Positions 2,891-64,000 of a DNA stretch of 64,000 nucleotides are shown piece by piece. Positions within the stretch are counted from its first letter, which is position 1, and every line of letters starts with the position of its first letter. Source of the stretch: Buxus sempervirens (Eukaryota > Streptophyta > Magnoliopsida > Buxales > Buxaceae); contig OX387192.1 of NCBI GenBank assembly GCA_947561395.2, positions 14,420,221 through 14,484,220 of the forward strand, written 5' to 3'. The notes beneath the pieces were generated by a model, which saw only the letters and a program-made list of their open reading frames with translations, was not told the origin of the DNA and did no database searches. Made by a program: the position numbers and the translations under genes.

Positions 2891-2895
2891 GATTG

Positions 2896-45475: not shown

Positions 45476-46356
45476 ATTCTCTGTTTTTTTTTCCGAACTC
45501 CATGATTGACTGGTTTTTAAGCTCTGTAACTGCTTTCTGGGGATCATTAGACTCCCAGAAGACACCTGAACCCACTTCAAAATTAATCTAACCTAACTTC
45601 TCCCCACGACTCAAATTTCTTTGCAAACCTACAAATCTGAAAACAAAACACGAACAACACTGACAAAGAAGGGAACTGGGGGCTTTACATCGGGTTACAA
45701 CAGAGATGAGATTACCATGGGGGAAAATGCTCCCCCTTCGAATCAATCAAGCACGAACAAAAAATAACATGCTAAAATGGGAAGCATGCTCGATTTATAC
45801 ATGTTAAAACAATAACAGAGAGAGAGCTCACCTTGAGGTTTTAAACCTTCATGGAGTCTGCGTGAGGCCCCCCTGGAGTGCACGAGCAGTCGCTGGAGCA
45901 ACACCTCTCCTCACCAGCTTGTCGTCTTCTCGGTTGTGAGGTAATCGGAGAGGAAGAAGGGAGGTTTTTTTTAACTTAGGCCAAGCGAGGAGGACTAGTT
46001 CTCCATGGGAAGAGCCAACCCTTAAAATGCCGAACCCCAAAAAAAATCCCGAACCCCAAAAAATGCCGAACTCAAAAACCCCAACCAAAATCTGAACCCC
46101 CTGCAACGAATGGTCGCGCGGTTTTTATAGGAGAGAAAAAAAGGGGTATCCGCTAAGCTTACGCTGAGCGCATACCGCTTGCCACGTTCGCGCGAGCGAC
46201 CAAATGATTAAAAATAAATTAATGCGGCCGCTCGATGGTCGGAAAATCCGAATTTTTCTGATTTAGTCCTTGGTTATTTTCAATTTAATCCAATATTCTT
46301 GGATTTTTACAGATTTAGTCCCTGGGATATTTTGAATGTTTGGATATTTACGGATT

Positions 46357-47766
46357 TGGAAAGCAATTCTTAATGTGAAAGAGGAAATTGTCAACAATAC
46401 TGGTTGGATAATCGAAGAAGGTAAGGTAAATTTTTGGTATGATAAATGGTCTCATTTGGGTATTATTGCTGACTTAGTTCGTGATCAAGATATTTTAAAT
46501 CCTAACCTTCAAGTTGCTGATATTATTGAGAATAATTCTTGGAATTTGGACAATGTGTCGCCCCCTCTTCCTATTGATATAAGCAGAAAAATTGAAGATA
46601 TATGGCCTATTCTTAGCTCTTTCCCGGATAAAGAGGTTTGGCTTCCTTCATCTAATGGTATTTTTTCAGTTCATTCGGCTTGGGATAAGATTAGGCATCG
46701 AGCTCCTTTTTTAGCTCATAGTACTTTCTGGATGTCTTTCATACCATCCAAAATCAGCACTTTTATTTGGAGGCTCACTAAGTGGGCGATTCCTACAGAT
46801 GATAGAATCAAATCTTGTGGGATTTCTTTGTGTTCCAAATGTTGTTGCAAGAATGCTAAGGAAGAAAGTATAGATCATCTCTTTTCTTACAATGATATAG
46901 CTCAGCATGTTTGGAAATATTTTGCTCAGAAGTTTAATCTCCAATTTCATCCTTTGCATGATACTCCCAGTCGAATATTTTTTTGGATGGGAAGAGCAGG
47001 TAAGAAAGATCAGTTGGGTTTACTTATGTTGTCTTTGCCTTTGTTCGTGATTTGGGAAATATGGATTGCAAGGTGCAGTCAACGTTTTGAAGAACAAGAT
47101 ATAGTTGCTGCTAACATCATTAACAGGACAAATCATAGAGTCCAAGAAGCTGCGTACATCACAAAGCCTAAGTTTCCTTGCACAATAGAAAGAAATATGA
47201 TCCTTGAAACTTTACATATATACAGTCCTCATATCAGCACCTCGCATGCTAAGTTAATCAAATGGAAGAGGCTTCGTTCTTGCTCTATGATTTTAAATAT
47301 TAATGGGGCGTCTAAAGGCAATCCGGGTGCAAGTGGGGGAGGAGGCGTTTTCAGAGATCCCCAAGGTAAATTTATTTTGGGATTTACGGCTAGATATGGG
47401 ATAACTACAAATATTTGTGCTGAAGTCCTTGCTTTAAAAGATGGACTTCAAATTGCTGATCAAGAAGGATTTCAAGATTTCATCATTGAAACGGATTCAA
47501 AATTAATTGCTGATGCAATTAATCACCATTCCTCCTTGCCTTGGAAGTGCTCTTTCTGGTGGAAGGAGATACTTTCAAGAATTGCCAATCATAACAGAAG
47601 CATCCAACATATCTATCGTGAAGGCAATAGTGTGGCAGATGCTATTGCAAATGAAGGTTGCAGTTACTCTCATCTTCAAATTTTCAACCTTGAGTCTATT
47701 CTTCCTGTAAAAGCTAAACATGCTTTATTTCATGATAAAACAGGTCTCTGTTGCTTTAGGCCTTAA
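46357..47766 (+). pseudogene. LINE ORF2 C-terminus: zf-RVT and RNase H domain
   Basis: The frame is open for about 470 codons but lacks endonuclease and reverse transcriptase, so it is a fragment. Upstream bases of LTR g happen to extend the frame to 46336. It begins WKAILNVKEEIV and EGKVNFWYDKW, typical of the region after RT, and the zf-RVT region has SKCCCKNAKEESIDHLF. The C-terminal plant-type RNase H (about residues 320-450) has SKGNPGASGGGG, AEVLALKDG (E present), IIETDSKLI (D present) and REGNSVADAIA (D present). The first catalytic Asp of the usual N-x-D-G is Asn here (LNINGASKG). With no 5' part it cannot act alone. Confidence 0.88.
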
Positions 47767-48363: not shown

Positions 48364-48870
48364 CCTAGCCCACTTTGGCAAAATTTAATAAAGATAACTC
48401 AAATCATTTGGTTACCAGTGTGTGGCCCACCCAGGGGCCCACAAATCAATCCAGACCCACTTTGCATGAAAATCAACTTAATTTTAAACTTGAACTTTAA
48501 AATAAAATCAATTCATTGGACAAAAGCCCAATGGGCGTCCCAGGCTTAGACTGAGGCCCACCACGGGACATGTGGGCTACACTTAGCCCACCAAGGAATC
48601 CGCGAGGCTTCCAACGGGGCCCGCCCAAACCAGACTCATCTCACCTTTAAGCTAAAAGATAAAATCAAGTAAAGGGACCCACACCACTCAGGTGATCCCA
48701 CCAGACTCAACAAAATGTACATGCTGGCTTAGGAACTGGGTGAGACCAAAATTGACTCAGAACCAGGAAACCCATGGGACCCGTCATCCGACGGGGCGGA
48801 CCGGGGTGTCTATGGACTTCCCCGTACCGTAATCGAGACCCTACCTTAGAATCTCAAGCCACATACCAGT
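48364..48870 (+). repeat. LTR copy f, continuation
   Basis: The GGCCCA block (48420-48610) and conserved segment (GACGGGGCGGACCGGGGTGTC, 48791-48811 in part) continue LTR f after solo LTR g. It is cut at 48870 by the 5' LTR of element H; the missing end of f should lie beyond the window. Confidence 0.75.
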
Positions 48871-50264
48871 TGTAAGCACCTCATTTTTGCGCTCCCAGAA
48901 CCAAAAATGCAAACCCTGGACAGAAAGTCAACCCTAAGGGGTGAAAAGTTGACTTTTTTTTATCAAATGAAATTGGCCACCTTTCTTTATCTCAATGAAT
49001 AGAGAATCCCGACACGAGTCCAACGCAACTGGGTTTGCAGGAATCAGGGTTCGGATGAAGGTTCTGCGGGCGGTCAAACTTAAGGAAAAGCCGAGAGTTG
49101 ACTTTTCCTCGAATTCCATGCCAAGTACCTTGCTTTATATCATTGGATAAAGAATCTCGACACGGTTCCAACACAACTGAGTTTGCAGGAAAATATCTCG
49201 GGGATCAAATCCGTAAATATCCAAACATTCGAAATATCCCAGGGACTGAATCTGTAAAAATCCGAGAATATCGGATTAAATTGAAATTGGCCAGGGACTA
49301 AATCTGAATTTTTAAGATTTTTTCGACCGGCGAGCGGCGGCATTTAATGAATTTTCATCATTATGCCGCTCGCGCGGACGTGGCGAGCAGCATGCGCTCA
49401 CCTAGAGCTGGGCGCCAAAGTGGGCGCAGACCCCCTTTTTCTTGCCTATATAAGGCCGCGCGGAGTTCACGCAGGGGGGTTGGGATTTTTTGTTCTTGGG
49501 TTGGGGATTTTTTTTCAGTGAAGGTTTTTATTCTGGTTGGCTGTTGGTTCTCAAAAAAAAAACTTCCCCTCCCGTGGCCTGACTTCCCTCCCTATATCCC
49601 CAAGCACCCGACCTTGCCTTCTGATCCTTCTTTTCTCCTTCTTCTTCATCCTTCTACCAAAGACCGGAGGAGCTACTCGCGGTGGCTGTTGGAGAGGAAG
49701 CTCGCAGCGGCGTTTCGCTTCGAGGAGGTCACACACTTCCACGAAAGAGCTCAGAACTTTTAGGTATTGTTCCCCTCTAGCTCCTATACCACATATATGA
49801 AAACTGGTTCTCTTGCATGACTTTTCTTGTGTAAGTATGGTATCCACCACGTTTGCTTCCACATGGGATCTCCCAGGCTACGGTTCTGGGCAATATGGGA
49901 TTTGGCGTAAAAGGGAGTGTGTTCCCAGCTAAGTGAGTCTTTTGTATCCCTGTAAACCCCCCCTCTCTTTCCTTTCCCTGACGGTTACCGGACATGCTCG
50001 AAGGTCCGGTCTAGCCCAGGCGTAGGCGAGGGTTTTGTGTTTTTTCTTGCCCATGCGATCTCCCTTTTGGCTCCCAACAGCCTTAAGGATTAAATCTTTG
50101 AAGTTTTTGTAAATATCTTGTAAACCTTCGCCCTCGATGGCAAGTTGTAATTTTTGCTGTGGTCCGACACCGGAAGCAGATGAAAGAACAGATGAAAGAC
50201 AGAAAGACTGATCAGGACTTGAATGTGCTCCTCTCCACAAGTATGTCTAGGAGTCGCGCCTTCA
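48871..50264 (+). repeat. 5' LTR of element H, with internal deletion
   Basis: It starts TGTAAGCACCTCATTTTTGC, identical to the 3' LTR. Relative to the 3' LTR it lacks 547 bp, joined at GCAGGAA (49185-49191). A TATA box is at 49447-49453. The end is uncertain. TTCA (50264) stands before TTGGCGCCAACC, a possible primer-binding site; alternatively the LTR runs to about 50290, because the related LTR c shows homology to that point. It shares U3 and leader architecture with the larger LTRs but lacks their GGCCCA block. Confidence 0.85.
49447..49453 (+). promoter_or_regulatory. TATA box of element H 5' LTR
   Basis: TATATAA lies in CCTATATAAGGCC, 576 bases into the LTR, downstream of a GC-rich inverted-repeat region (49330-49430) and upstream of a pyrimidine-rich leader. 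The same box is at 63163-63169 in the 3' LTR. Confidence 0.7.
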
Positions 50265-50282
50265 TTGGCGCCAACCCTTAGG
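50265..50282 (+). other. Candidate primer-binding site
   Basis: TTGGCGCCAACCCTTAGG follows a CA. A TGGCGCC start would pair with a tRNA ending GGCGCCA, and plant Ty3 elements often have TTGGCGCC here. Against this, the related sequence near 12250 has decayed and seems to lie inside an LTR. The tRNA is not assigned. Confidence 0.35.
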
Positions 50283-50465
50283 ACCACACACCATGTGTGC
50301 CTGAGTTAAATTCCGCACTGGTTTTGTCTTTTGCTTTATTTTTTGTAAAGCATGATAGAACTGCTAGTGATTAGTCTTTTGCTTGAAATTGTGCATGTCT
50401 TAGGACTGATTAAGAGTTTGGTGTGGAACCTTAAACTGATTTGGAATTTCGATCAGATAGTTGGC

Positions 50466-51590
50466 ATGGCATCCTCATCCTCATCTGAGAGAACCCGTTT
50501 CCCTAGGATAGAGAAGTGCGCCTGGGATACCCCCTGGATCCGTTCTTGGACAAGGCAGCTCCAAGGGAGTGAGCAGATTGAATGGGAGCACAAATACCAC
50601 ATCGGACAGACTTTGTCCCTATTAAATGTGCCGATCAATTGGGATATGATCCAAGCAGCATTGCTTTTCTGGGATCCCCAGCTTTCAGTTTTTCGATTCG
50701 GGGTCAATGAGTTGACTCCCACAATTGAGGAACTTGACCTGTTCCTCCGATTTCGCGACTTAGGAGAACCCGCTAGGCCAAGCCTCAAAGAAAGCTACAA
50801 GAATGAAGCTTGTGTTTTCTTTGGCCTCTCAAGGGGAGAATTCCAGACCTTAGGAGGTGACAAATCATTTACTAGGGTCTCCAAAACATTCCTTGCTGAA
50901 AAGATAAGAAACAAAAAGCAGGAAAGACCCCGGGCTTGGTTTGACACCTTCAACCTTGTGGTTCTGTCACAAATCTTCTTTCCAACTGGGGGAGACACCA
51001 TTAATTTGACCCTCATGGAAATTGTGGATCAACTCAGGACAGGGTACCAAATCATGCCACTGATCCTAGCTCAATTGTTCCATTCCCTGACTTTGTCCAA
51101 AAATGGAACCCGGAGGTTTCAAGGGTGCGCTCCCCTTCTCCACCTTTGGCTGCAAGACCACCTGATGGTGTCATCACCAGTCAATGCATATTACAAGGCA
51201 ACCGGCGACAACATCCATTGGTTGGCTCAAAGAGAGATCAAACCAGACCTACCCGCCCATGAGGATTGGTTTAACCACTTTCTCCACCTGAAGGGAGAAA
51301 CAGACATTAGATGGTGGGGTACATACAACATCCCCTACACCCCCATCATAGCTTTCAAGAAAAGAGAGGGACTTGCCTTGATAGGCCTCACCCATGCTGT
51401 GCCGTACTATCCGATTCGGGTTCTGAGACAGTTTGGGAAACCGCAGGGAATCCCAGTCAAGGACAACATGAGCAGTTTGATTGGTCCACTCACTAAAGGA
51501 CTAAGGACCCGACTATTGACAGAGTGGAAGATGGTGTGCGTGTATCGGGAAGACATCTTCACCGAATTACACTTTCAAGATTACGAGTAG
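50466..51590 (+). CDS. Plant-mobile-domain / DUF7745-like protein (ORF1 of element H)
   Basis: This is a captured-type accessory protein of unknown biochemical role. Plant mobile domains (PMD) occur in host proteins of the MAIN/MAIL type and inside plant Ty3/gypsy and MULE elements. I start at ATG 50466 (MASSSSSERTRFPRIEK), which gives 374 residues; the frame is open from an ATG at 50352 that would add a 38-residue hydrophobic leader. Family-like features are WDTPWIRSW near residue 20, NWDMIQAALLFWDPQ near 60, and FGVNELTPTIEELDLF near 80, resembling the PMD F-x-EMTPTLED signature, followed by W-rich helices. The frame ends at TAG 51588, but a 102-codon coiled-coil-like tail continues in the same frame. 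I identified the family by memory of motifs, not by search. Confidence 0.65.
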   Translation: MASSSSSERTRFPRIEKCAWDTPWIRSWTRQLQGSEQIEWEHKYHIGQTLSLLNVPINWDMIQAALLFWDPQLSVFRFGVNELTPTIEELDLFLRFRDLGEPARPSLKESYKNEACVFFGLSRGEFQTLGGDKSFTRVSKTFLAEKIRNKKQERPRAWFDTFNLVVLSQIFFPTGGDTINLTLMEIVDQLRTGYQIMPLILAQLFHSLTLSKNGTRRFQGCAPLLHLWLQDHLMVSSPVNAYYKATGDNIHWLAQREIKPDLPAHEDWFNHFLHLKGETDIRWWGTYNIPYTPIIAFKKREGLALIGLTHAVPYYPIRVLRQFGKPQGIPVKDNMSSLIGPLTKGLRTRLLTEWKMVCVYREDIFTELHFQDYE

Positions 51591-51899
51591 TGGATAGCTC
51601 GAGAATTTGGCCACGATGGCCCCCCACCTCTACAGCCTGTCGCTTCAAGCGACATTCCAGTTTTGCCCCCTAACACATATAGGGACAGGGTGGCCAAACT
51701 GCAGGAGACCCACTCCCGTATCCATTCAGCTTATGTGGATTCGGAACGGGAGAGTAGGCAGGCCAATACGGCCTTGCAACATGAAATGGAATTAGTGCGT
51801 AAGCGCGCCGAGGAGGACCGACGTCTGCGGAACAAGATTCTGCGAGCCTTGAGGAGGCAAGACGTGTCCTCCCACTATGATGATGACCAACCTAGCTAG
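51591..51899 (+). pseudogene. In-frame tail of ORF1 beyond a stop codon
   Basis: After TAG 51588-51590 the same frame encodes 102 residues: WIAREFGHDGPPP, a proline-rich linker, then a charged heptad-like segment (TYRDRVAKLQETHSRIHSAY, ERESRQANTALQHEMELVRK, RRLRNKILRALRRQ), ending at TAG 51897. Continuity of composition and frame suggests the original protein ran through. No internal ATG is well placed (one is at 51780). It is a nonsense-split gene or, less likely, a readthrough product. Confidence 0.6.
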
Positions 51900-52199
51900 A
51901 CTTTGGCTTTGTTGTATTTTGATAAGCATGATGATGTATTTTGTGCTGCGGCGGCAATTTTTGATTGAAGCATGAATTTATTTTCACTATGCTATGTTGT
52001 TCAGACTTAACAAAACAAGAACAAGAAATGGAAGAATTAATTCCCTCCAATAGGGCAACTCGGTCTCCGACAGACCACCTCTTCTCAGATAATTGCAATA
52101 TTCCTGGTCGCTGCGACCACCTAATTTCCTTTAACTGCATCTCTCTCATTGAGATCGCAAAACCCAGCAAGTGTTTAAAAACACCCAAGACATAGAGCT
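51900..52199 (+). other. Non-coding spacer before the minisatellite
   Basis: No coding signal is convincing. It contains a perfect GGTCG-CTG-CGACC inverted repeat (52108-52120) and GTGTTTAAAAACAC (52170-52183) just before the array, consistent with a hairpin-rich zone. Confidence 0.5.
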
Positions 52200-53830
52200 C
52201 AGAGCGTCTAAAATAGGGTTCTCTTTCCCAGTCGCCCCCGAGCGTCTAAAATAGATCAGCTTTCAAAAATAGGGTTCTCTCTCCCAGTTGCCTACGGGTA
52301 GCTAAAATAGATTTGGTTACTAGGGTTCTCTTTCCCAGTCGCCCCCGAGCGTCTAAAATAGATCAGTTTTCAAAAAATAGGGTTCTCTCTCCCAGTTGCC
52401 TACGGGTAGCTAAAATAGATTCGGTCATTAGGGTTCTCTTTCCCAGTCGCCTCCAAGCGTCTAAAATAGATCAGTTTTCAAAAATAGGGTTCTCTCTCCC
52501 AGTTGCCCACGAGTAGCTAAAATAGATTCGGCTATTAGGGTTCTCTTTCCCAGTCGCCTCCAAGCGTCTAAAATAGATCAGCTTTCAAAAATAGGGTTCT
52601 CTCTCCCAGTTGCCTACGGGTAGCTAAAATAGATTTGGTTACTAGGGTTCTCTTTCCCAGTCGCCTCCGAGCATCTAAAATAGATCAGTTTTCAAAACTA
52701 GGGTTCTCTCTCCCAGTTGCCCACGAGTAGCTAAAATAGATTCGGCTATTAGGGTTCTCTTTCCCAGTCGCCTCCAAGCGTCTAAAATAGATCAGCTTTC
52801 AAAAATAGGGTTCTCTCTCCCAGTTGCCTACGGGTAGCTAAAATAGATTTGGTTACTAGGGTTCTCTTTCCCAGTCGCCTCCGAGCATCTAAAATAGATC
52901 AGTTTTCAAAAATAGGGTTCTCTCTCCCAGTTGCCCACGGGTAGCTAAAATAGATTCGGTCATTAGGGTTCTCTTTCCCAGTCGCCCCCGAGCGTCTAAA
53001 ATAGATCAGCTTTCAAAAAAATAGGGTTCTCTCTCCCAGTTACCCACGGGTAGCTAAAATAGATTTGGTTACTAGGGTTCTCTTTCCCAGTCGCCTCCGA
53101 GCGTCTAAAATAGATCAGTTTTCAAAAATAGGGTTCTCTCTCCCAGTTGCCCACGGGTAGCTAAAATAGATTCGGTCATTAGGGTTCTCTTTCCCAGTCA
53201 CCTCCAAGCGTCTAAAATAGATCAGTTTTCAAAAATAGGGTTCTCTCTCCCAGTTGCCCACAGGTAGCTAAAATAGATTCGGTCATTAGGGTTCTCTTTC
53301 CCAGTCGCTTCCAAGCGACTAAAATAGATCAGCTTTCAAAAAAAAATAGGGTTCTCTCTCCCAGTTACCTGCGGGTAGCTAAAATAGATTCTGTCATTAG
53401 GGTTCTCTTTCCCAGTCGCTTCTGAGCGACTAAAATAGATCAGCTTTCAAAAAAAATAGGGTTCTCTCTCCCAGTTACCTGCGGGTAGCTAAAATAGATT
53501 CGGCTATTAGGGTTCTCTTTCCCAGTTGCTTCCGAGCGACTAAAATAGATCAGTTTTCAGAAAAAATAGGGTTCTCTCTCCCAGTTACCTACGGGTGGCT
53601 AAAATAGATTCGGCTATTAGGGTTCTCTTTCCCAGTCGCTTCCGAGCGACTAAAATAGATCAGCTTTCAGAAAAAATAGGGTTCTCTCTCCCAGTTACCT
53701 ACGGGTGGCTAAAATAGATTCGGTCACTAGGGTTCTCTTTCCCAGTCGCTTCCGAGCGACCAAAATAGATCAGTCTTTAGATTCATTCAGGTTCTCTTCC
53801 CTTGTTGCCCTAGGGTAGCTAAAATAGACC
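52200..53830 (+). repeat. Minisatellite 1 of element H: ~15 dimers of ~107 bp
   Basis: Two related half-units alternate. Type A is AGGGTTCTCTTTCCCAGTCG, then GCGTCTAAAATAGATCAG. Type B is AGGGTTCTCTCTCCCAGTTG, then GGGTAGCTAAAATAGATT. I count 15 occurrences of the A-type start between 52216 and 53730, spaced 105-113 bases. Each half-unit has an inverted repeat immediately after CTCCCAG/TTCCCAG: AGTTGCC-TACG-GGTAGCT (B), and AGTCGCT-TCCG-AGCGACT (A, 3' half of the array). Short open frames inside are not genes. It lies between ORF1 and gag and may be intronic (inference). Confidence 0.93.
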
Positions 53831-53999
53831 AGTTAGTCCAATTACATCAGATGAGAAAAATTAATAAAAAAAGAAACAAATCAGATAAAGTTATGTAAAC
53901 AATTTGTGTAAAGTGGCACTAATACTTATCAGTTGTCAATCAGGTACCAACATCGCCTCCAGAAGTCCGTACCTACTAAGATCAAGGAAAAGGCCTGAT

Positions 54000-55424
54000 A
54001 TGGACCAACAAGGAGAGCAGACACCGCCGGGGGAGCACCCGACAGAATCTAGCCATGGGCCAGTAGTGAATGAGATGCAACAGTGAATTGACAGCATGGG
54101 GTCCGTCATCCAAGAACTAATGGCAGAACTAAGAGAGCTAAGGCAGGTCCCACCAGTGGTACCCGTCGCCCAGCAGCCGCAGCCACAGCCACATTTCCCG
54201 CCACAAGCAGAGATGGCACCACCACTTTACCCAGCGCATCCTCCTCCCGAGGCACCACCACAGCCACCACCAGCGGTGCCTTTCCACATCACGCAGCAGG
54301 ATCAGTTTGTACCGGCTCAACTGGGGCAGCATGACGAAGACTGGTACAGAACTCAGGAAGCGCAGTTTGAAGGAAAATTGGCAACGGTAAGAGAAGAAAG
54401 CAAGGCAGAAATGGCCACCATGAGAGAACTCCTCAAACAGGTCCAACCCAGTGCAGTGCAGAGCGAGACTACGCTTGAAAGCCTTTGTTTCTTTTCAGAC
54501 ATCCAGCTCCCGGCTAAGTTCAAATGTCCTGAGCTACATCAATTCGACGGCACGGGTTGCCCACTGAACCACCTAAGATCATATTCTGGCGACATGTGTC
54601 AGTATGCCAAGGAAGAACAGATCATGGTACAGTTCTTCCAGAAGTCGTTGACTGACGCGGCTCACTCTTGGTTTTTGAGTCTGGATAAAATCAAAATTAA
54701 GACATGGAACGACTTGGCCGCAGTGTTCATCCAATGGTATCGTTTGAATAGCCAAATGGTTCAAACCCAGGCAGAATTGCAAAGGTTGTCAAGGAGGAAT
54801 AGCGAGTCTGTGAGAGACTACACTAAAAGATGGATGAAACTAGCAAGTGTGGTGCAACCCCCGCTCCTTGAACAAGAACAGACTTCTTTGTTCATTCCAT
54901 CGCTGGGGCAACCATACTTCACAATGCTGTTAGGACAGTGTGCCGCGAACTTCACCGACCTAATCATGGCGGCAGGCAGGATCGAAGATGCGATTAAGGC
55001 TGGAAAGATAGGAGGCTCCATGACAGGATCCTCCCATGGAGGGAAAGAAGGCATAAGATATGAAGGAACGATCAACCATGTCCGATCCGCCAAGCGCAAG
55101 AGAGGAAGCGACCACCCCCATGCCAGTGTCGCCCCAGCTCAGCTAAAGGAACCTTTGACCAAGGAAGAAAGGAAGAACCGTGTGTTTACACAGCTCCCAT
55201 ATACCTTGGCAGAATTGTTGCCCACCTTGTTGCAAGAAGGACACCTGAAGCAGGTTCCACCAAATAGAAGGGCACCAGCAAGTAGAGGGTATGACCCAGC
55301 TAAGGCATGCGGTTACCATAAAGGGGCACCAGGGCATGACACTGATGAGTGTTGGAGCCTTCGTCATGCCGTCCAAGATCTTCTGGAAGCTGGGGAGCTC
55401 AAGATCGACCCCCCGCCAAATTAA
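54000..55424 (+). CDS. gag: Gag of element H, split near its N-terminus by an in-frame TGA
   Basis: Gag forms the virus-like particle and binds RNA. ATG at 54000 opens 28 codons (MDQQGEQTPPGEHP...) that meet TGA at 54084-54086. The same frame then stays open for 445 codons; the next ATG is 54096 (MGSVIQELMAELRELR). In order: a Pro/Gln-rich segment (about residues 18-66 of the 442), a charged helix, and the retrotransposon-gag core (about 135-270) with GDMCQYAKEEQIMVQFF, WFLSLDKIKIKTWNDLA and NSESVRDYTKRWMKLA. A basic SAKRKRGS follows, then FTQLPYTLAELLPTLL and a knuckle-like CGYHKGAPGHDTDECW. It ends IDPPPN before an A-rich run. The core is intact, so translation from 54096 could give a working Gag. 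Confidence 0.88.
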
Positions 55425-55556
55425 AAACAAAAAAAAAACAAAACAAAAAAAAAAAGAGAAGAAAGAGATTAATTGAAGTCCTCAGCGTCATCATGCATCT
55501 TGGCATTTCACATCATGTATTCTGCCTTCTAATGTTTATCGCTCCTGCCAGGAACC
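55425..55556 (+). other. A-rich intercistronic stretch
   Basis: Runs of A with C and G interruptions (55425-55460) follow the gag stop, with a second in-frame TAA at 55470. The decayed element at 2979-3080 (minus) has the same A-rich stretch after IDPPPN, so it is a conserved trait. ORF2 lies in the same frame as gag. Confidence 0.6.
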
Positions 55557-56321
55557 GTGTCGACAGTCAACATGGATAGCACTTCAGGAATGCTTCCAGT
55601 GGTACGCGAGATGGTGGACCTTTTCCATATATTATGGCAAATAATACAGGACAGAGAAGAAGCGTGGAATAAACGCTGGGAAGCATGGAGGGAAGAAGAT
55701 TTCGAGCTGCGAGTCAGAGTAAGGGTTCTTGAAGAAGAAATCAAAAGCATGAAAGAAAAGATACCCTTGAGCAGCCAAGAAGTGAGCCCTCCACTAACCA
55801 TAGCAGATGGTCGAAGGCAAAGGGAGAAAGGAAAAGCCATAGCGGCAGATGTTCCCCAGCTTACGAAGAAGCTAAACGTCTACCGTGGCAAAGGGCAACA
55901 CGACCGAAGGATGGATCATTCAGAGGGCCCCCCAAGGAGGACAAGAGAAGAAATGGAGGCCAGACTGAGGAGGGTTTTTACCCCACTACCATATACACCG
56001 GCTGGGTTACTACCAATGCTGCTGAAGGAGGGGTACATGCGGATTAAGCCCCCGAACCCTCGATTGGTTAATGCCAGAAGCTACAATGCTGCGGAGCGAT
56101 GCGAGTACCATTCTGGTACTCCAGGGCACCACACAAGCCGGTGCTGGGACCTCCGGCATGATATTCAAGATCTGATTGATCAAGGATTCTTGAAGGAAAT
56201 GCTCGAGGAGCCAAGGTTCACTGAAGGACAAGACATCTCTGACGTGTTAGCACAGATTCGGATATCTGAACCACTCATCTCCCCACAAGAAGGAGAGGAT
56301 GATGATGAGGAGAGCACTTGA
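55557..56321 (+). CDS. ORF2 of element H: coiled coil plus a second copy of the Gag zinc-knuckle module
   Basis: The likely start is ATG 55572 (MDSTSGMLPVVREMVDLFHI), because the frame's first codons use GTG; this gives 249 residues. The N-terminal ~65 residues are a charged, heptad-rich helix (EEAWNKRWEAWREEDFELRV). A basic linker with GRRQREKGKAI follows. From about residue 136 it repeats the module found at the end of gag: FTPLPYTPAGLLPMLLKEGY, then CEYHSGTPGHHTSRCW and LRHDIQDLIDQGFL. It ends in an acidic EGEDDDEEST tail. It has no protease motif (no D-T/S-G). In full-length relatives this position would be the gag-pol junction. Its role is unknown; RNA binding through the knuckle is likely by analogy. 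Confidence 0.7.
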   Translation: MSTVNMDSTSGMLPVVREMVDLFHILWQIIQDREEAWNKRWEAWREEDFELRVRVRVLEEEIKSMKEKIPLSSQEVSPPLTIADGRRQREKGKAIAADVPQLTKKLNVYRGKGQHDRRMDHSEGPPRRTREEMEARLRRVFTPLPYTPAGLLPMLLKEGYMRIKPPNPRLVNARSYNAAERCEYHSGTPGHHTSRCWDLRHDIQDLIDQGFLKEMLEEPRFTEGQDISDVLAQIRISEPLISPQEGEDDDEEST

Positions 56322-58225
56322 AGGCTCCCGGCCGTGGCATGCAACAAAATTCCAAGAACGCCGATTACATCGGCCACCCTTTTGCATAGCTTGATTGCCT
56401 GTTTTGCTTATGCTTTCTTTTCTTTTAAACTCTGAACTAGACAGCATATTTCTTTTTACAAGATTATGAAATCTTTTGGGAAAATCACTGAAGTGTTCGG
56501 CCGCACCCAGGCATGACCGTGATCTTGGGACAAACCTGAACAATCAAAATGTGACAAATGGAACGTGCCAAACAGCACAAACTGTGCGGGTCTCAACATA
56601 GCTAAGGGATCCCCCCAACATCACATCAAAAACCTACCTCGCCAAACAAAGGGGCAAATTGTGATATGGGAGAAAAGAAAAGAAAGGGCAGGGTACCTAT
56701 ACTAGTCAAAGGTCATTGACATAATCTAGGATCAATGATCTCAATGAAATGATGAGAGGCCATTTTTTGGTTAAGATACTTCAAATAAATTCCGCTAGTT
56801 AAACGCGTTGAGCTTGATCGTCTCATTTCCAACCCACGTTGTGTCTAGCCACCCCAAACTGGGGTAAAGTCAAAAAGCAAAAGAATAAAAATAATAATGA
56901 ACAAAGAAGAAGAATGGTTCTCGAGCCAGCTAATCATGCAAAAGTAATTAAGTGTTACATTCTCTGTGAAAGGAAGAAAGGCCATCCTTGATCCTCTCCC
57001 AAAACTCATCTGACACAAGATGAAACCCTAGCAAAACACTTTGAGCCTAACAATTCCTTCATTAAACCTACCATGTCTTGTCTCCAAAACTGGGGCATAA
57101 AGATTCGTACAGTCAAAGATGCAAAAAGGAGAAAGGTGAAAATAGGGCAAAGCGAAAAGCACCCTAAGAACAAAGGGGACAGAAATAAGGAATGGAGAGA
57201 GCCCCAGAAAGCAAGAATGTGAAGAAAGAACTGGGGCAGTCCCTCGAAGAAAAAAAAGAAAAAAGAAGAGAACGAAAGCCGGGGCAAACCCCGAGGGCAA
57301 GAATCAAGAATTGGGGCAGAATACCCAAGAAAGAAGGGAAAGAAAGAAAAGAACAAAAATGGAAGAATGAGAAGAAGCTAAGTTGCAGGAACAAAGGTGA
57401 AGCGAGCCCTAACCAAAAAAGGGGTGGACAAGACATGGCTCTTAACCCATACGTCAATTTCGAGCCTTTATATCATTTCTTTTGAACCCTTGAGCCCAGC
57501 CTACATTTCATCCTACTATGAAGTCCTTTTTGATTGCAGAGAATGTAACATCGAATCTTGGGCAAGCTGGCAATGACAGAACCATAAAAGATAGAGAAGA
57601 ACTTTGGCTAGACAGAATGTTTACCCATAGAGTGAAGCTGTATAGGGTTTGAGCCTATTTATCCTTCATTTCTAAACACTGGAAACAAAGCCTACATTTC
57701 GTCCTACGGATAAGCCCTCTCTGATCATTGTGTGTCATGATCCATGGAAATTGTCAGGGCCCTAAAACTGGGATGGGACACCAAACCCAAATGAGAGAAT
57801 CAATCAAAGAAAAAAATCCCTTACACAACCCCCAACCAAGGGTAGGGGAAAAGGAGAAAGAAAAAGAGAAAGAGAAAGTCAAAGAAAAGCCAGGGCGGGG
57901 CAGTACCAAAGAAACCCCCTGAACCTAAGATAACTCCCCTCATTTCAACCGGGGGCATGCCATTGAAGGCCAAAATGTTGAGACACCTACAGGGAGTGCC
58001 GGATGGCACATTTTCCTAAGTCTAAACGAGAGTGTTAGGTAACTGACCCAAAGATTGCTGGTCTCGCCATGGAACCACTTCAGAAAGGAAAATCCGAACA
58101 TTTGGTGAATCCCCAAAAGGCTTCAACAAAGGAGAAATTACTTGGATTTGCACATAATTTTTGATGAAACAAATGAATTCTAATTGACCCAACTTCACAT
58201 GAACTTCTACAGGTACTAACAGAAC
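56322..58225 (+). other. Non-coding spacer where pol would be expected
   Basis: No protease, RT, RNase H or integrase motif is visible in any frame. The stretch is purine-rich and repeats PPT-like AAACTGGGG(C/T)A words near 56860, 57088, 57228, 57272, 57313 and 57890. A longer motif, CAGCCTACATTTCGTCCTAC with variants, occurs near 57497 and 57682 and again at 60478. These words commonly lie 3' of pol in plant gypsy elements, so this may be expanded 3'-untranslated sequence joined to gag by deletion of pol (inference). The frames 57728-57922 and 57006-57356 are low-complexity. Confidence 0.6.
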
Positions 58226-58229
58226 TTGA

Positions 58230-59096
58230 GACAGACAGAAAAGCCATCACTGCGTATTCACACGCTGATGCGCAGACAATCGTCACCGTGTATTCACACA
58301 TGGGACGCAGAAAAGCCATCACTGCGTATTCACACGCTGATGCGCAGAAAACTGTCACCATGTATTCACACATGGGACGCAAAAAAGCCATCACTGCGTA
58401 TTCACACGCTGATGCGCAGACAATCGTCACCGTGTATTCACACATGGGACGCAGAAAAGCCATCACTGAGTATTCACACGCTGATGCGCAGAAAACTGTC
58501 ACCATGTATTCACACATGGGACGCAGAAAAGCCATCACTGCGTATTCACACGCTGATGCGCAGAAAACCGTCACCGTGTATTCACACAAGGGACACAAAA
58601 AGCCATCACTGCGTATTCACACGCTGATGCGCAGAAAACCGTCACCGTGTATTCACACAAGGGACGCGAAAAGCCATCACTGCGTATTCACACGCTGATG
58701 CAAGAAAATGTCACCGTGTATTCACACATGGGACGTGAAAAAGCCATCACTGCGTATTCACACGCTGATGCAAGAAAACCGTCACCGTGTATTCACACAT
58801 GGGACGTAGAAAAGCCATCATTGCGTATTCACACGCTGATGCAAGAAAATGTCACCATGTATTCACACATGAGACATGAAAAAGCCATCACTGCGTATTC
58901 ACACGCTGATGCAAGAAAAAAACAGCACCGTGTATTCACACAGGGGACGCGGAAAGGTCATCAAAGCGTATTCACACGCTGATGCAAGAAAAACGTCACT
59001 GTGTATTCACACATGGGACGTGAAAAAGCCATCATTGCGTATTCACACGCTGCTGCAATAAAGAACCGTCGCAATGTATTCACACATTGGACATGG
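58230..59096 (+). repeat. Minisatellite 2a of element H (unit ~72 bp)
   Basis: There are about 12 units, each with two GTATTCACAC halves: GCCATCACTGCGTATTCACA then CGCTGATGCGCAG, and GTCACCGTGTATTCACACAT then GGGACGCAG. The 72-base period is a multiple of three, so all frames stay open on both strands; the resulting peptides are not genes. Later units shorten to about 66-69. Each half is an inverted repeat around ATTCAC (GCGT/ACGC and CCRTGT/ACATGG). Confidence 0.93.
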
Positions 59097-59363
59097 AATA
59101 AGTTGATGCCAAAGTCGCCGACGGAGGAGTCGGAGATTGGTGAAGGAATGGCATAAACCAAAGTTTGTAATACCAAGGCTGCCAATAGAGGAGTCCGAGA
59201 TTGGGGGAAGGAATGCCCCAGCATAACCAAAGTTTGTAATACTAAAACCGCCGGCGAATGAATCAGAGATTGGCAGAGGCAATTTTGAATGCAATCAAGC
59301 AAGAAAAAAGGAAATAACCAAGTCAGGATAAGTAATGGACAAAGACAAAAGGAGCAAGGTATC
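59097..59363 (+). repeat. Three ~66-bp units with GGAGTCGGAGATTGG
   Basis: Units contain CCAAAGTCGCCGACGGAGGA, GTCGGAGATTGG and GGAATGCCATAACC-like text. A fourth unit is at 59731-59770. With the following AGACAAAAGGAGCAAGGTAT, this block recurs after minisatellite 2b, so array plus block were duplicated together. Confidence 0.8.
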
Positions 59364-59718
59364 TCCCAAAAAATGTCACCGTGTATTCACACATGGGACG
59401 TGAAAAAGCCATCACTGCGTATTCACACACTGATGCAAGAAAATGTCATCGTGTATTCACACATGGGACGTGAAAAAGCCATCACTGCGTATTCACACGC
59501 TGATGCAAGAAAACCGTCACCGTGTATTCACACATGGGACGCAGAAAAGCCATCATTGCGTATTCACACGCTGATGCAAGAAAATGTCACCATGTATTCA
59601 CACATGAGACGTGAAAAAGCCATCACTACGTATTCACACGCTGATGCAAGAAAATCGTCACCGTGTATTCACACATGGGATGCCAAAGGAGTCATCACAG
59701 TGTATTCACACATTGGTT
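59364..59718 (+). repeat. Minisatellite 2b of element H
   Basis: Five more units of the ~70-base repeat (ATGCAAGAAAATGTCACC type) follow, resembling the last units of 2a. The block GCCAAAGCTGCTGATAGATG, AGTCAGAGATGGG (59733-59766) follows it, matching the block after 2a. Confidence 0.9.
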
Positions 59719-59870
59719 GACAGAATCTTGGGAAGCCAAAGCTGCTGATAGATGAGTCAGAGATGGGTAGAAGCAGTTTCAGATACAACCAAGACAAAGA
59801 AAGAAATGAGCAAGGATAGAAGGAGCAAAACGTCTCCCAACACCAAGAGATAAGGTAGCCTTGGAGCAAA

Positions 59871-60059
59871 GTGGCTCCACAAAATCGAATGAGATGTTTC
59901 CATCAAGAGGACAATAGAGGGAAATTCAAGCCAAACTACAAAGGGTCATTCGTAGTCCACAAGGTTCTGTCCCGAGGAGCACTCATCCTGCAAGAAATGG
60001 ATGGGGCAATTTTTCCTGAGCCGATAAATGCAGACGCAGTCAAACTGTACTATGCCTAG
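59871..60059 (+). pseudogene. Integrase C-terminal tail, only remnant of pol
   Basis: About 55 codons encode RGKFKPNYKGSFVVHKVL, GGALILQ-like RGALILQEMDG, and EPINADAVKLYYA before TAG. This is the characteristic end of plant Ty3/gypsy integrases (GPY-type module, here KGSFVV, then the N-A-D-x-L-K-x-Y-Y terminus). The catalytic D,D-35-E core, zinc domain and all upstream pol are missing. The frame starts with GTG at 59871 and no good ATG, so it is not likely expressed. It proves descent from an autonomous element by internal deletion. Confidence 0.85.
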
Positions 60060-62026
60060 GATCATTCTGATTGGGAAATGAAGAGAGGCCTTCCTTGACT
60101 CTCCTTTAGATTGTAAATCCTTCCAAGTACCTTAAATTCTCCCCTAGTTAGACAATTTTGAGCCTTAAAATTCTTTCAACCCATTGCAAGTGTTCTACAC
60201 ATCAAATGGGGCATTCCTGGCAAAGCAAAAAGAAACCGGGCATTCTTGCCCATAAAAACCTCAAAAAAGGAGAAGAAAGTGAAATAAAAAAAAAAGAGAG
60301 AAAGAAAGGAAAAAAGAAAAAGAAACAAAAAAAATGGGAAATGTTTGCCCGGCCAAAAATATAGAGATACGAATAAGCCAGGATGTAAGACCCACCAACA
60401 ATAAAAATAGCACACTCTGCAAACCCAGATAATTAAGCTTTTTTGAGCCATCTATCCTTTCTTTCATAACCGAGACCCAGCCTACGTTTCGTCCCATCTC
60501 TAAGATCTCTCAGATCCCAAAAAGAATGATCAAGGCAAACAGTTAGGTCTGCGTTCATCAGCAATGACGGAATTCAATGTTTCCTAGAAAGGATGGACAC
60601 AGCGAAAACCCGAAAAAAGGGCGTTGCGTGGTTAGTCAACAAAAAAAAAAAGAAAAAGAAAAAAAAGAGAACTAGTCACATCTGGTTTGAGCAGAGAAAG
60701 ATACGGAGGAGAGCAGTGATAGTGGCAGATAGTAAAATGAGAAAATTGAACAGATTTGAGAGGTCCAGACTGGCTGGTTGCGCCCGAGTCAAAGACTTCA
60801 CAGTGGCCTGTGATGACAATGCTTCTGAAAGTACAGCAAAAGTGGGATAACGGACATCTTCTCCAAAATCCCCAGCGGAGTTCCTTCAGTAAACGGAGAA
60901 TAGCAACCTCCAAAATCCCCAGTGGGAGGCCTTCAGCAAACAAGGGACGACACCCTTACGTCCCCAGTAGCGTCCTCTCAAGCAATAAAAGAATGATACC
61001 GGATGACGTAGACTTACCAAGCCTCGCCCAGTCTGAAGAGGCCGGCTTTGCGAAGAAGAGTAGAAAGAAGACAAGCAAGCTCGCATCAATCCCTGGTGGA
61101 GTCTCTCGCACTCAACAAGAACTTGAACGAACATGAAGAATTCGCACCCAAGCAGAGGGAGAAGGCCTTACAAAGGAAAATGACAGCGTGAGGAATCCCC
61201 ACTTATCCCCAGGGGAGCATCCTTCCCCGGGGAACTCCCACGCTTGTCACGAACAAGGCTCGACCCGAAAGAAGAGGCAATAAGAAAAAAGATTCCTGCC
61301 CAATCCCCAGCAACAGTCACTCCAAGCTGGGGAGCCTCTACAAGAGGGAAAGCCAATCAGAAAGTACTGCAGAAGAAGGAATGACAAAATATGAAGAAGA
61401 ATGAACATAAATGAAGATATCATCGGGCAAGATGGCCCCTTTTTGTAATTTTTTATTTTACACTTTTGTAAATAGAGTAGAGCAGGTGTGTAGGCTCCCT
61501 TGAGGCACTGGACAGCGCTGGAAGCACCTCCTCACCAACAGCAGCTCCTCCTCCGCTCTTCCTTCCTCCTTTCTCCATTCGGTCCACATCTTAACCCAAC
61601 CCTTAGCCACCAAATCCTATAAAAAAAAAGAAAAAAAAAGAGAAGAAGAAAATGCAGGCAAGCTTCAAGTAAAAGACACAAAATGGATCAGAAGTCTGAA
61701 GTCACCTAAAAGCTTTAATGGAACAAACAAGAAGAAAAGAATATTGTCAAGTGTCTGGCATCGACGCCGAAACAGGTTGGCGAGCTCAAGTCCAATCTAA
61801 TCTCTTTCAAACTTAAACTAAAATGCTGAAGAGTTGCCCTACAAAAACCCGAAAAGCAAAGGGAAAGGAAACTCTGAAGCTAGGAAGTGACGCCACATGA
61901 TTTGGCCGCTTCCCTCTCAAAGTGAAAATTTCAAAGGACTAAACTCCTCAACCATGTCGACAGAAATGCCAGGCGCAAAAACGAGATTCTTTTTCTCTTT
62001 GCCGTTCATCCGCAAGGTGACTCCGG
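60060..62026 (+). other. 3' spacer of element H
   Basis: No gene. It has A/G-rich tracts (60260-60335, 60640-60670, 61620-61650) and a GCCTACGTTTCGTCCC motif (60480). A short duplication with AAAATCCCCAG (60861-60930) and repeated TCCCCAG words (60960, 61194, 61202, 61310) follow. The last 300 bases match element C in reverse (GGCATCGACGCCGAAACAGG near 61759). Confidence 0.6.
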
Positions 62027-62040
62027 CAAAGAGGGGCAGC
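62027..62040 (+). other. Polypurine tract of element H
   Basis: AAAGAGGGGCAGC ends exactly at the first base of the 3' LTR. It matches the tract of element C (AAAGAAGGGCAGC on the minus strand at 23792). Confidence 0.85.
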
Positions 62041-63778
62041 TGTAAGCACCTCATTTTTGCGCTCCCAGAACCAAAAATGCAAACCCTGGACAGAAAGTCA
62101 ACCCTAAGGGGTGAAAAGTTGACTTTTTTTATCAAATGAAATTGGCCACCTTTCTTTATCTCAATGAATAGAGAATCCCGACACGAGTCCAACGCAACTG
62201 GGTTTGCAGGAATCGGGGTCCGGATGAAGGTTCTGCGGGCGGTCAAACTTAAGGAAAAGCCGAGAGTTGACTTTTCCTCGAATTCCATGCCAAGTTCCTT
62301 GCTTTATATCATTGGATAAAGAATCTCGACACGGTTCCAACACAACTGAGTTTGCAGGAATCGGGGTCCGGATGAAGGTTCTGCGGGCGGTCAAACTTGA
62401 GCAGGGCCAAAGGTTGACTTTTTGCTAAAATCCGATCCAGAGGCCTACCCCTAGGTCATTGGATAGAGAATCTCGACACGGTTCCAACGCAACTGAGTTT
62501 ACAGGAATCGGGGTCCGGATGAAGGTTCTGCGAGCGATCAAACTTGAGCAGGGCCAAAAGTTGACTTTCTGCTAAAATTCGATCCAGAGGCCTACCCCTA
62601 GGTCATTGGATAGAGAATCTCGACACGGTTCCAACGCAACTGAGTTTGCAGGAATCGGGGTCCGGATGAAGGTTCTGCGGGCGGTCAAACCTGAGCAGAG
62701 CCAAAAGTTGACTTTCTGCTAAAATCCGATTCGGAGGCCTACCCCTAGGTCATGGGATGGAGGGCTCCGATACGATTCTAATGAAACTAAGTTTGCCCAG
62801 ATCGGAGTCCGGATGAAGAAAATATGAGCTGATGAAATTTCCGAGCAGCAAAACCGGCAATCTGCGCACGTGGCAAAAAGCTGCACACGTGGCGAGTTGC
62901 GCAGGAAAATATCTCGGGGATCAAATCCGTAAATATCCAAACATTCGAAATATCCCAGGGACTGAATCTGTAAAAATCCGAGAATATCGGATTAAATTGA
63001 AATTGGCCAGGGACTAAATCTGAATTTTTAAGATTTTTTCGACCGGCGAGCGGCGGCATTTAATGAATTTTCATCATTATGCCGCTCGCGCGGACGTGGC
63101 GAGCAGCATGCGCTCACCTGGAGCTGGGCGCCAAAGTGGGCGCAGACCCCCTTTTTCTTGCCTATATAAGGCCGCGCGGAGTTCACGCAGGGGGGTTGGG
63201 ATTTTTTGTTCTCGGGTTAGGGATTTTTTTTCAGTGAAGGTTTTTATTCTGGTTGGCTGTTGGTTCTCAAAAAAAAAACTTCCCCTCCCGTGGCCTGACT
63301 TCCCTCCCTATATCCCCAAGCACCCGACCTTGCCTTCTGATCCTTCTTTTCTCCTTCTTCTTCATCCTTCTACCAAAGACCGGAGGAGCTACTCGCGGTG
63401 GCTGTTGGAGAGGAAGCTCGCAGCGGCGTTTCGCTTCGAGGAGGTCACACACTTCCACGAAAGAGCTCAGAACTTTTAGGTATTGTTCCCCTCTAGCTCC
63501 TATACCACATATATGAAAACTGGTTCTCTTGCATGACTTTTCTTGTGTAAGTATGGTATCCACCACGTTTGCTTCCACATGGGATCTCCCAGGCTACGGT
63601 TCTGGGCAATATGGGATTTGGCGTAAAAGGGAGTGTGTTCCCAGCTAAGTGAGTCTTTTGTATCCCTGTAAACCCCCCCTCTCTTTCCTTTCCCTGACGG
63701 TTACCGGACATGCTCGAAGGTCCGGTCTAGCCCAAGCGTAGGCGAGGGTTTTGTGTTTTTTCTTGCCCATGCGATCTC
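62041..63778 (+). repeat. 3' LTR of element H (right end interrupted)
   Basis: It begins TGTAAGCACC after the polypurine tract and aligns with the 5' LTR to GCGATCTC (63778), where the two diverge abruptly. It keeps four to five tandem U3 units of about 147 bases (AATCGGGGTCCGGATGAAGG near 62211, 62359, 62506 and 62653, variant near 62796); the 5' LTR has lost most of these. TATA at 63163-63169. Confidence 0.9.
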
Positions 63779-64000
63779 TGTCTTTTATGGTCACTATTTA
63801 ATTTTTGCTAAACATGCCAACATGCTCCCCAACCCCCTGCCTGTGTGCTTGCTAACATGCTCCATCATCCTCATTACCCCTGTGAAGTCATCGGGCTTGG
63901 TTTTATGTATCATCGGGTTCGGTTTTGCCTAAAAAGAGATGTGGGGTCGTGTGATGAAGTAGTTCAGATTAATTTGAATGCATGTTTAAGGGTCTCTTGG
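63779..64000. other. Unidentified sequence interrupting the 3' LTR
   Basis: From TGTCTTTTATGGTC onward the sequence no longer matches the 5' LTR (which continues CCTTTTGGCTCC at 50063). A TG start after ATCTC would fit another LTR insertion, but its other end lies beyond the window. No gene is seen. Confidence 0.5.

What the first reader, a model, noticed from the sequence alone, without database searches (positions are those of the whole stretch)
48871..63778. Candidate system: a retrotransposon lineage that lost pol but keeps Gag, a plant-mobile-domain protein and hairpin arrays
Element H is young by its LTRs yet has only the integrase tail left of pol. It keeps a PMD/DUF7745-like ORF, gag and a Gag-knuckle ORF, and two large hairpin arrays. 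Element C and the 8-12 kb segment carry different arrays of the same design. Hypothesis: the arrays are cis RNA elements that let a non-autonomous element capture particles or trans-acting RT, with Gag or the extra knuckle protein as reader. PMD genes and gag-only elements are each known in plants; the combination with hairpin arrays is, to my knowledge, not described.
Basis: partly seen in the sequence, partly recalled or inferred. Interest (0 to 1): 0.85.

Follow-up and report, generated by a model that had tools for sequence, protein, structure and literature searches.

The report
Pol-less retrotransposon with hairpin-string RNA arrays
A family of plant jumping genes has lost its copying enzymes but keeps its shell proteins under selection, swaps its ends with enzyme-bearing cousins, and carries strings of short hairpins, one shared with those cousins and one seen so far only in enzyme-less copies.

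Summary
Element H is real, but its right-hand end was misplaced. It is one decayed copy of a multi-copy, pol-less Ogre-type (Ty3/gypsy, Tat) family. The same genome holds pol-bearing partners; in the three fetched, LTR, PMD and 3' regions are about 93-99% identical to H, but the array 1-gag stretch only 72-74%. LTRs of the two kinds intermingle (one pol-less clade rejected, p-AU 5e-41) while gag separates them 100/100, so their RNAs probably recombine in shared particles. Gag, an extra knuckle protein (ORF3) and PMD are under purifying selection (dN/dS 0.25-0.33). ORF3's nucleocapsid part is 83% identical to the partner's Gag, 49% to H's own. Both arrays are hairpin strings with compensatory stem changes. 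The array in the place of pol was seen only in pol-less copies; its loop AUUCAC is nearly invariant. Gag-supplying non-autonomous partners (wheat Quinta/Cereba), PMD in Ogre, and arrays in pol-less Ogre are published. New here are the covarying hairpins and the partner-type nucleocapsid protein. What the arrays do, and whether they act as RNA, remains inference.

The parts
48871..50062 (+). 5' LTR of H, internally shortened and cut off at its 3' end
   Evidence: TG start as in the 3' LTR (sequence); core 49185-50062 is 99.54% identical to 62901-63778; fewer 147-bp U3 repeats than the 3' LTR
50062..50063 (.). deletion junction: LTR 3' end, primer-binding site and ~1.1 kb leader missing
   Evidence: in L009, L015, L018 and L020 the LTR continues as at 63779 onward; sequence matching 50060 resumes only 2.6-3.2 kb beyond the point that matches 64000
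50352..51590 (+). ORF1: plant mobile domain / DUF7745 protein
   Evidence: Pfam PF24924 1.6e-21, PF10536 6.1e-19; dN/dS 0.262 over 6 copies, 4 of them with in-frame stops
52214..53828 (+). array 1: tandem hairpins upstream of gag (7-bp stem, often UNCG loop)
   Evidence: TRF; covariation; also in 3 of 3 pol-bearing relatives
54096..55424 (+). ORF2: Gag with C-x2-H-x5-H-x4-C knuckle
   Evidence: Pfam PF03732 7.4e-12; dN/dS 0.248, bootstrap 0.194-0.326, 13 copies; 63% protein identity to partner Gag
55557..56321 (+). ORF3: N-terminal part without known relatives plus partner-type Gag nucleocapsid
   Evidence: 83% identity over 77 aa to partner Gag, 49% over 95 aa to own Gag; dN/dS 0.323, 13 copies
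56339..58223 (+). A-rich segment found only in pol-less copies, occupying the place of pol
   Evidence: matches L018/L019, L020/L021, L029, L030 (76-96%), not L009-L017
58236..59092 (+). array 2, first block: alternating alpha/beta 36-bp hairpins with loop AUUCAC
   Evidence: TRF; pairing and covariation; loop conservation; fold z -4.5 for 58236-58535
59370..59711 (+). array 2, second block
   Evidence: TRF
59901..60059 (+). last ~52 codons and stop of the integrase ORF, the only pol remnant found
   Evidence: 59901 is where ~94-95% DNA identity to partners resumes (L011:462, L012:4259 minus strand), inside their integrase ORF ending at L012:4104
60060..62040 (+). 3' noncoding region ending in a purine-rich tract before the LTR
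   Evidence: 91-97% identity among A and B copies over 60831-62040; sequence
62041..64000 (+). 3' LTR; continues to about 64961 outside the window
   Evidence: LTR end ...GCGCGCACA at L028 position 1182; flanking CCAGC against upstream CCAGT at 48866-48870, 4 of 5 target-site bases

Best explanation
H is a decayed copy of a semi-autonomous Ogre-type family. SHOWN: the family lacks pol but keeps PMD, Gag and ORF3 as selected proteins; it shares LTRs and 3' ends with pol-bearing partners; LTRs group across the two kinds; both arrays are hairpin strings whose stems changed in a compensating way. INFERRED: RNAs of both kinds enter the same virus-like particles, where the partner's reverse transcriptase and integrase copy both and template switching exchanges ends; the pol-less element pays part of the cost by supplying Gag. 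The pre-gag hairpin array, shared with the partner, most likely acts on the sense RNA as a Gag-binding (packaging or dimer-linking) or translation-spacing element. Array 2, in the place of pol, would add many copies of a second hairpin with a nearly fixed loop. ORF3, with its partner-type nucleocapsid, would help hold pol-less RNA in partner particles.
For: Three pol-bearing relatives carry RT, RH, a second RNase H and integrase domains, the same PMD ORF, array-1 units and near-identical ends. The LTR tree (12 LTRs, 3 A and 3 B elements) mixes A and B: H groups with L009/L011 and L012/L014, L018 with L015/L017; one B clade rejected, p-AU 5.1e-41; gag separates A and B 100/100. dN/dS: gag 0.248 (13 copies) and 0.331 (6), ORF3 0.323 (13), PMD 0.262 (6); 95% bootstrap upper bounds all below 0.5. 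ORF3 versus a second family, L053: 0.248 at dS 0.60. ORF3 nucleocapsid 83% to partner Gag. Array 1: 86.9% of cells paired versus 11-43% when slid, 54 both-side changes versus 17 in shuffles. Array 2: 92.1% versus 10-58%, 65 versus 21. Array-2 loop 146 of 152 identical, 0.009 changes per site against 0.046-0.066 in the arms.
Against: No expression, particle or binding data. Repeat units are related, so covariation counts are not independent events; for array 1 the number of further pair types is reached by 57 of 500 shuffles. G-U cells exceed A-C cells in both arrays (62:23, 49:20), but slid controls range from 114:45 to 6:40 (array 1) and 144:3 to 28:117 (array 2), so this says nothing about strand. 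Array 1 RNA is not unusually stable (z -1.25). In the second family's 22-bp arrays A-C exceeds G-U (13 to 5). H lacks the primer-binding site, so it is not a working copy. In-frame stops: gag 2 of 13 (B1) and 3 of 6 (B2), PMD 4 of 6. B2 copies lack ORF3 yet multiplied, so ORF3 is dispensable. Gene conversion between integrated copies could also mix LTRs.
Confidence: 0.57

Rival explanations
1. The hairpin arrays are by-products. Palindromic units stall reverse transcriptase and multiply by slippage or template switching, and mismatched arms are corrected against each other (quasi-palindrome correction), so matched stems arise without selection.
For: Tandem arrays are common and hypervariable in Tat/Ogre elements and are thought to arise by abnormal strand transfer (PMC7004042 passages). 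Copy numbers vary among copies. Array 1 folding energy is unremarkable. Tandem 147-bp LTR repeats with no fold signal coexist. The G-U excess does not survive the slid control.
Against: The array-2 loop is 5-7 times less variable than the arms. A 14-base hairpin core (TCGCCTCCGAGCGT) recurs in arrays with different linkers and period, though such a short match could be chance.
Confidence: 0.37
2. Pure parasite: the pol-less family uses the partner's Gag as well; its own gag, ORF3 and PMD are relics.
For: H lacks the primer-binding site; several gag and PMD copies have stops.
Against: Purifying selection on gag, ORF3 and PMD among copies, and on ORF3 between two pol-less families.
Confidence: 0.1
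3. One reading: the arrays are special capture devices of non-autonomous elements only.
For: Array 2 found in 5 of 5 pol-less copies and 0 of 3 pol-bearing ones. Its unit occurs 1248 times in the genome, reversed-pattern control 0. Of 16 clusters (counted by eye) among the first 100 listed places, all on C1, 6 have a pol-less-type gag or ORF3 hit about 2.7-3.5 kb upstream; the other 10 have none in the capped hit lists.
Against: Array 1 is in 3 of 3 pol-bearing relatives. Only 3 pol-bearing copies were checked for array 2.
Confidence: 0.2
4. The arrays act as DNA: satellite seeds, chromatin or recombination hotspots, not as RNA.
For: Ogre arrays seed satellites in Lathyrus (PMC7004042 passages). 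Nothing measured here separates RNA from single-stranded DNA hairpins.
Against: UNCG loops on the sense strand (80 of 146 array-1 units, 41 of 146 as C(UNCG)G) are a feature known for RNA stability (recalled).
Confidence: 0.15

Closest known systems
RLG_Quinta / RLG_Cereba of wheat (PMC11302176, passages read)
   Same: Non-autonomous partner without RT/INT that encodes Gag plus a domain of unknown function; LTR ends and primer-binding site conserved with the autonomous partner; strongly diverged Gag DNA (Quinta A versus B about 65%) between flanks over 90% identical, attributed to template switching.
   Different: Centromere-specific elements. No PMD ORF, hairpin arrays or partner-type nucleocapsid protein in the passages read.
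Semi-autonomous RLG_Sabrina / RLG_WHAM with RLG_Wilma (PMC9744471, passages read)
   Same: Gag-coding, pol-less high-copy elements presumed to use an autonomous partner; LTR trees used to pair partners.
   Different: Sabrina has Gag-protease rather than Gag plus ORF3; no hairpin arrays in the passages read.
Pol-less Ogre elements with tandem arrays in Lathyrus sativus (PMC7004042, passages read)
   Same: Ogre lineage; GAG close to tandem arrays; pol missing through large deletions.
   Different: Arrays treated as satellite sources; the strings hairpin, palindrom and secondary structure do not occur in the main text.
Ogre lineage with PMD extra ORF (PMC6317226, passages read)
   Same: PMD in 57% of Ogre elements; second RNase H between RH and INT; very large elements with arrays.
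   Different: No pol-less PMD family in the passages read.
TR-GAG elements (recalled; only search listings of papers naming them were seen)
   Same: LTR, gag, no pol.
   Different: No PMD or ORF3 that I recall; H is far larger (recalled).

Membership tests
Ogre lineage (Ty3/gypsy, Tat) | extra ORF with plant mobile domain | tested here: met
   H; relatives; frequency in Ogre from PMC6317226
Ogre lineage (Ty3/gypsy, Tat) | additional RNase H between RH and integrase (shared with Retand) | tested here: met
   in pol-bearing relatives only: L016 RT 1081-1241, RT_RNaseH 1330-1434, RVT_3 1491-1609, H2C2 1701-1755
Ogre lineage (Ty3/gypsy, Tat) | primer-binding site for tRNA-Arg (recalled as typical) | tested here: inconclusive
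   relatives have TGGCGACTC... just after the LTR; match to tRNA-Arg is recalled; the genome search did not complete
[quoted passage not shown]
   no reference RT set was at hand
Gag-supplying non-autonomous partner (Quinta/Sabrina kind) | no RT/INT coding, gag kept | tested here: met
   purifying selection
Gag-supplying non-autonomous partner (Quinta/Sabrina kind) | LTR ends and primer-binding site shared with one autonomous family | tested here: met
   LTR identity and mixing; the primer-binding site begins TGGCGACTC in L009, L015 (A) and L018 (B), with differences further along; H itself has lost it
Gag-supplying non-autonomous partner (Quinta/Sabrina kind) | mobilised by the partner | not testable with these tools
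   needs particle or insertion data
Hypervariable tandem arrays of Tat elements | family-specific tandem repeats of variable copy number in noncoding internal regions | tested here: met
Known structured RNA family (Rfam) | match to a covariance model | tested here: not met
   0 matches at E 0.1 in 48800-64000

The most novel reading that the evidence does not exclude
The hairpin strings are a packaging code. A pre-gag string of hairpins, many with UNCG loops, is read by the Gag nucleocapsid of pol-bearing and pol-less elements alike. The pol-less family added a second string with a near-invariant AUUCAC loop in the place of pol, and ORF3, a separate protein with the partner's own type of nucleocapsid; together they steer its RNA into partner particles: a dedicated RNA-protein hitch-hiking system in plant retrotransposons.
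Probability: 0.2. Interest if true: 0.82.

Novelty: new variant of a known kind. Interest (0 to 1): 0.54.

Why it matters
How non-autonomous LTR retrotransposons get their RNA into another element's particles is, to my knowledge, poorly understood in plants. Here one genome offers a pol-less family, its likely partner, evidence that their sequences recombine, and defined hairpins plus a candidate reader, so specific binding and packaging tests can be designed. It also suggests that some of the 'hypervariable' arrays of Ogre-type elements, usually seen as satellite seeds, may be structured RNA.

Tried and rejected
Array 2 as a coding repeat: it is open for stretches of 133, 136 and 143 aa, but repeats are 70-73 bp and linkers 8-11 bp, so the frame is not kept; weak Pfam hits there (HEWD, L51, DUF4881) are below their cut-offs.

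ORF3 as a host gene: no Pfam hit; AlphaFold on the single sequence is low confidence (mean pLDDT 49.9; helices 12-68 and 82-118), so I did not search folds.

Energy alone as proof of hairpins: fails for array 1 and for 8503-8626.

Odds were lowered for it (best explanation 0.60 to 0.57, novel case 0.22 to 0.20, by-product rival 0.33 to 0.37, DNA rival 0.12 to 0.15, interest 0.56 to 0.54).

Relatives in viral contigs: none. Rfam: none.

Loop conservation was circular (units were found by the loop); repeated with the loop masked. A fuzzy match found fewer units (47 alpha, 42 beta) and was superseded. One search found no files and was rerun. One search gave the whole-ORF3 result and then failed on the split by halves, not repeated.

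Rows dropped: L018 and L020 were left out of the gag dN/dS set (L018 gag is frame-broken, L020 open), and L029/L030 gag were not added; frameshifts are not counted in the stop tallies. Twelve 31-base array-1 units had a T appended at their 3' flank, outside the stem; 11 of 161 anchors gave no unit.

Not achieved: genome-wide pairing of array-2 sites with gag and tRNA identity of the primer-binding site.
Full report
What is there. The window lies in a 676-Mb genome held without a name (G000:C15:14420221-14484220); that it is a plant is inferred from PMD and Ogre content. Element H starts at 48871 with TGTAAGC. Its ORFs are PMD/DUF7745 (50352-51590), gag (54096-55424) and ORF3 (55557-56321). Array 1 lies between PMD and gag. 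Array 2 lies after ORF3, in front of the last ~52 codons of integrase. No pol domain was found in the forward frames of 56100-62032; reverse frames there were not searched.

True ends. Comparison with other copies shows that the 3' LTR does not end at 63778. It runs on to ...GCGCGCACA at 64961, read from the fetched downstream stretch L028. The five bases after it are CCAGC, against CCAGT before 48871: a target-site duplication with one difference. 63778 is only the point where the broken 5' LTR stops matching: a deletion at 50062/50063 took the LTR 3' end, the primer-binding site and ~1.1 kb of leader (leader length by hand from L009, L015 and L018). H is therefore a dead copy of a family, not the family itself.

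Partners with pol. Three LTR-paired relatives (A: L009-L011, L012-L014, L015-L017) carry RT, RNase H, a second RNase H (RVT_3) and integrase domains in the space where H has its A-rich segment and array 2. Their LTR cores are 93-99% identical to H's, the PMD region 95.6-95.8%, the 3' region 93.5-94.7%, but the array 1-gag stretch only 72-74% and Gag protein 63%. A search with a 2.2-kb pol stretch from one of them scored 40 of 5183 candidates; 39 places besides the query matched at 94-95%, and one 85% piece. Pol-bearing relatives are thus abundant; the LTRs and gag of those 39 were not looked at. The second RNase H between RH and integrase, and a PMD extra ORF, are Ogre features in PMC6317226 (passages).

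Pol-less family (B). A gag+ORF3 DNA search scored 40 of 2661 candidates: 22 copies with gag and ORF3 at 88-100% (B1, H included), 17 with gag only at 94-95% (B2), 1 truncated. Five pol-less copies were seen at length: H, L018/L019, L020/L021, L029, L030; all five have array 2. Array 1 is seen whole in three and only at its end in L029 and L030, whose stretches begin there. In four more B1 copies the 3' LTR lies about 7.5 kb after the gag start, as B spacing predicts, against roughly 10.5 kb in one A element (by hand; uncertain by multiples of the 147-bp LTR repeat); that they lack pol is inferred from this.

Selection. dN/dS (Nei-Gojobori, codon bootstrap): gag B1 0.248 (0.194-0.326; 13 copies), gag B2 0.331 (0.227-0.460; 6), ORF3 0.323 (0.225-0.437; 13), PMD 0.262 (0.188-0.358; 6 copies, A and B). 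In-frame stops: gag 2 of 13 B1 and 3 of 6 B2 copies, ORF3 2 of 13; PMD 4 of 6. Frameshifts are not in these counts. Copies came from the top of a similarity-ranked list (12 of the 21 other full B1 hits, 6 of 17 B2 hits), which may favour intact ones; L018, whose gag is frame-broken, and L020, L029 and L030 were not in the gag set. A second pol-less family was found through ORF3 (150 of 709 candidates scored, 59 at 82-99%, 91 at 54-72%). Its member L053 has gag pieces (59-71% protein), ORF3 (74% over its length), no pol domain in 9 kb of forward frames, and the same B-only segment (82%) interrupted by a nested LTR. ORF3 between the two families: dN/dS 0.248 (0.157-0.351), dS 0.60. The pol-less layout therefore appears to predate their split.

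ORF3. Residues 127-203 are 83% identical to the A-type Gag nucleocapsid; against H's own Gag, ORF3 is 49% identical over 95 residues. The first 126 residues match nothing in the fetched A elements; the single-sequence model is helical but low confidence.

Exchange of ends. In the tree of 12 LTR cores from 3 A and 3 B elements, H groups with L009 and L012-L014, L018 with L015, and L020 branches outside H's group; one B clade is rejected (log-likelihood 173 lower, p-AU 5.1e-41). The grouping by pol was fixed beforehand, but I had already seen the identity table. In the gag tree (3 A, 5 B) A and B are separated with 100/100 support. The simplest reading is template switching between co-packaged RNAs; gene conversion between integrated copies is not excluded.

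Hairpins. Array 1: 150 units came from 161 anchors, 146 of one length, 58 distinct. Stem 7 bp, loop 4. Pairing 86.9%; sliding the partner by 1-3 columns gives 11-43%; 5 of 7 pairs show changes on both sides (2 of 500 shuffles reach this), 54 cells against 17.2 in shuffles; further pair types 12 against 10.5, reached by 57 of 500 shuffles. Loops are UNCG in 80 of 146 units, and C(UNCG)G in 41; TCCA and TATG (32 units) are what CpG decay of UNCG would give. Units were anchored on flanking words, so flank conservation is not evidence. Array 2: found with the loop masked, 152 units in 5 copies, 61 distinct; alternating alpha and beta hairpins with the same loop and different stems; 92.1% paired against 10-58% slid; 65 both-side cells against 20.7; pairs with both-side changes 7 against 3.7, reached by 7 of 500 shuffles. 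The common frame for alpha and beta was set by hand to fit the hairpin, which favours it. Loop AUUCAC intact in 146 of 152, 0.0088 changes per site against 0.046 and 0.066 in the arms. G-U exceeds A-C in both arrays (62:23; 49:20), but slid controls are as skewed in either direction, so whether the structure matters as RNA or DNA is open. RNA folding z of the first 300 nt: array 2 -4.5, array 1 -1.25, LTR repeats +0.3.

Second family. Upstream of gag, L053 and others carry 22-bp hairpins CGCC-UNCG-GGCG with a different linker, followed by what by eye are hairpins of other stems in a fixed order, not tested statistically. UNCG loops 13 of 26; pairing 76% against 30-49% slid; A-C (13) exceeds G-U (5). 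Of eight fetched stretches meant to lie upstream of gag, five (L055, L057, L058, L059, L061) show this array; L054 has a 22-bp repeat of other sequence, L056 and L060 none of this type; gag itself was recognised in six of the eight. The core TCGCCTCCGAGCGT occurs in both array kinds, so the shared UNCG loop may reflect common origin, not independent gain.

What is known. PMD in Ogre, pol-less Ogre with arrays near GAG, and Gag-supplying pol-less partners with recombined ends are published (PMC6317226, PMC7004042, PMC11302176, PMC9744471; passages only). Retand elements include non-autonomous ones and arrays in about half (PMC11963269; abstract, parts 1-2 of 5 and passages). Three searches gave no paper on hairpin arrays in such elements: 3 papers, listing only; none; 1 paper, passages. 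Macas 2009 was seen only as a citation.

Verdict. Ordinary in kind, unusual in detail: a semi-autonomous Ogre-type family with covarying hairpin strings and a partner-type nucleocapsid protein. Function of the arrays is inferred.

Noticed in passing
window 2580-4218, minus strand: Older degenerate gag (68.7% DNA identity to H) followed by a homologue of the ORF3 N-terminus (57% protein identity over 86 aa).
   Followed up: partly
window 8392-8626, minus strand; L053:120-375, L055, L058, L059, L061: String of hairpins with different stems in fixed order and A-rich linkers; homologous to the pre-gag arrays of the second pol-less family.
   Followed up: partly
window 7002-7178 and 38841-38946: Very strong palindromic tandem repeats (fold z -14 to -16 and -8 to -10) in other LTR-element sequence; element context not worked out.
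   Followed up: no
window 62161-62818 and copies: 147-bp U3 tandem repeats vary in number between the two LTRs of H and among copies; no fold signal.
   Followed up: partly
G000:C8:31593647-31607658: Five LTR-core matches at 90-91% within 14 kb, four of them on one strand spaced about 3.5 kb: LTRs that may be tandemly duplicated.
   Followed up: no
L049-L052 (3' LTRs of four B1 copies): LTRs match H only up to about 63200 and then differ: B1 copies with 94-95% identical gag carry different downstream LTR segments.
   Followed up: partly
window 25034-27745, minus strand; 46336-47766, plus strand: LINE-type ORFs: reverse transcriptase and zf-RVT on the minus strand, zf-RVT and RNase H on the plus strand.
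   Followed up: no
L009:6099-9100, L053:3707-6655: Apparent nested LTR insertions inside family members.
   Followed up: no
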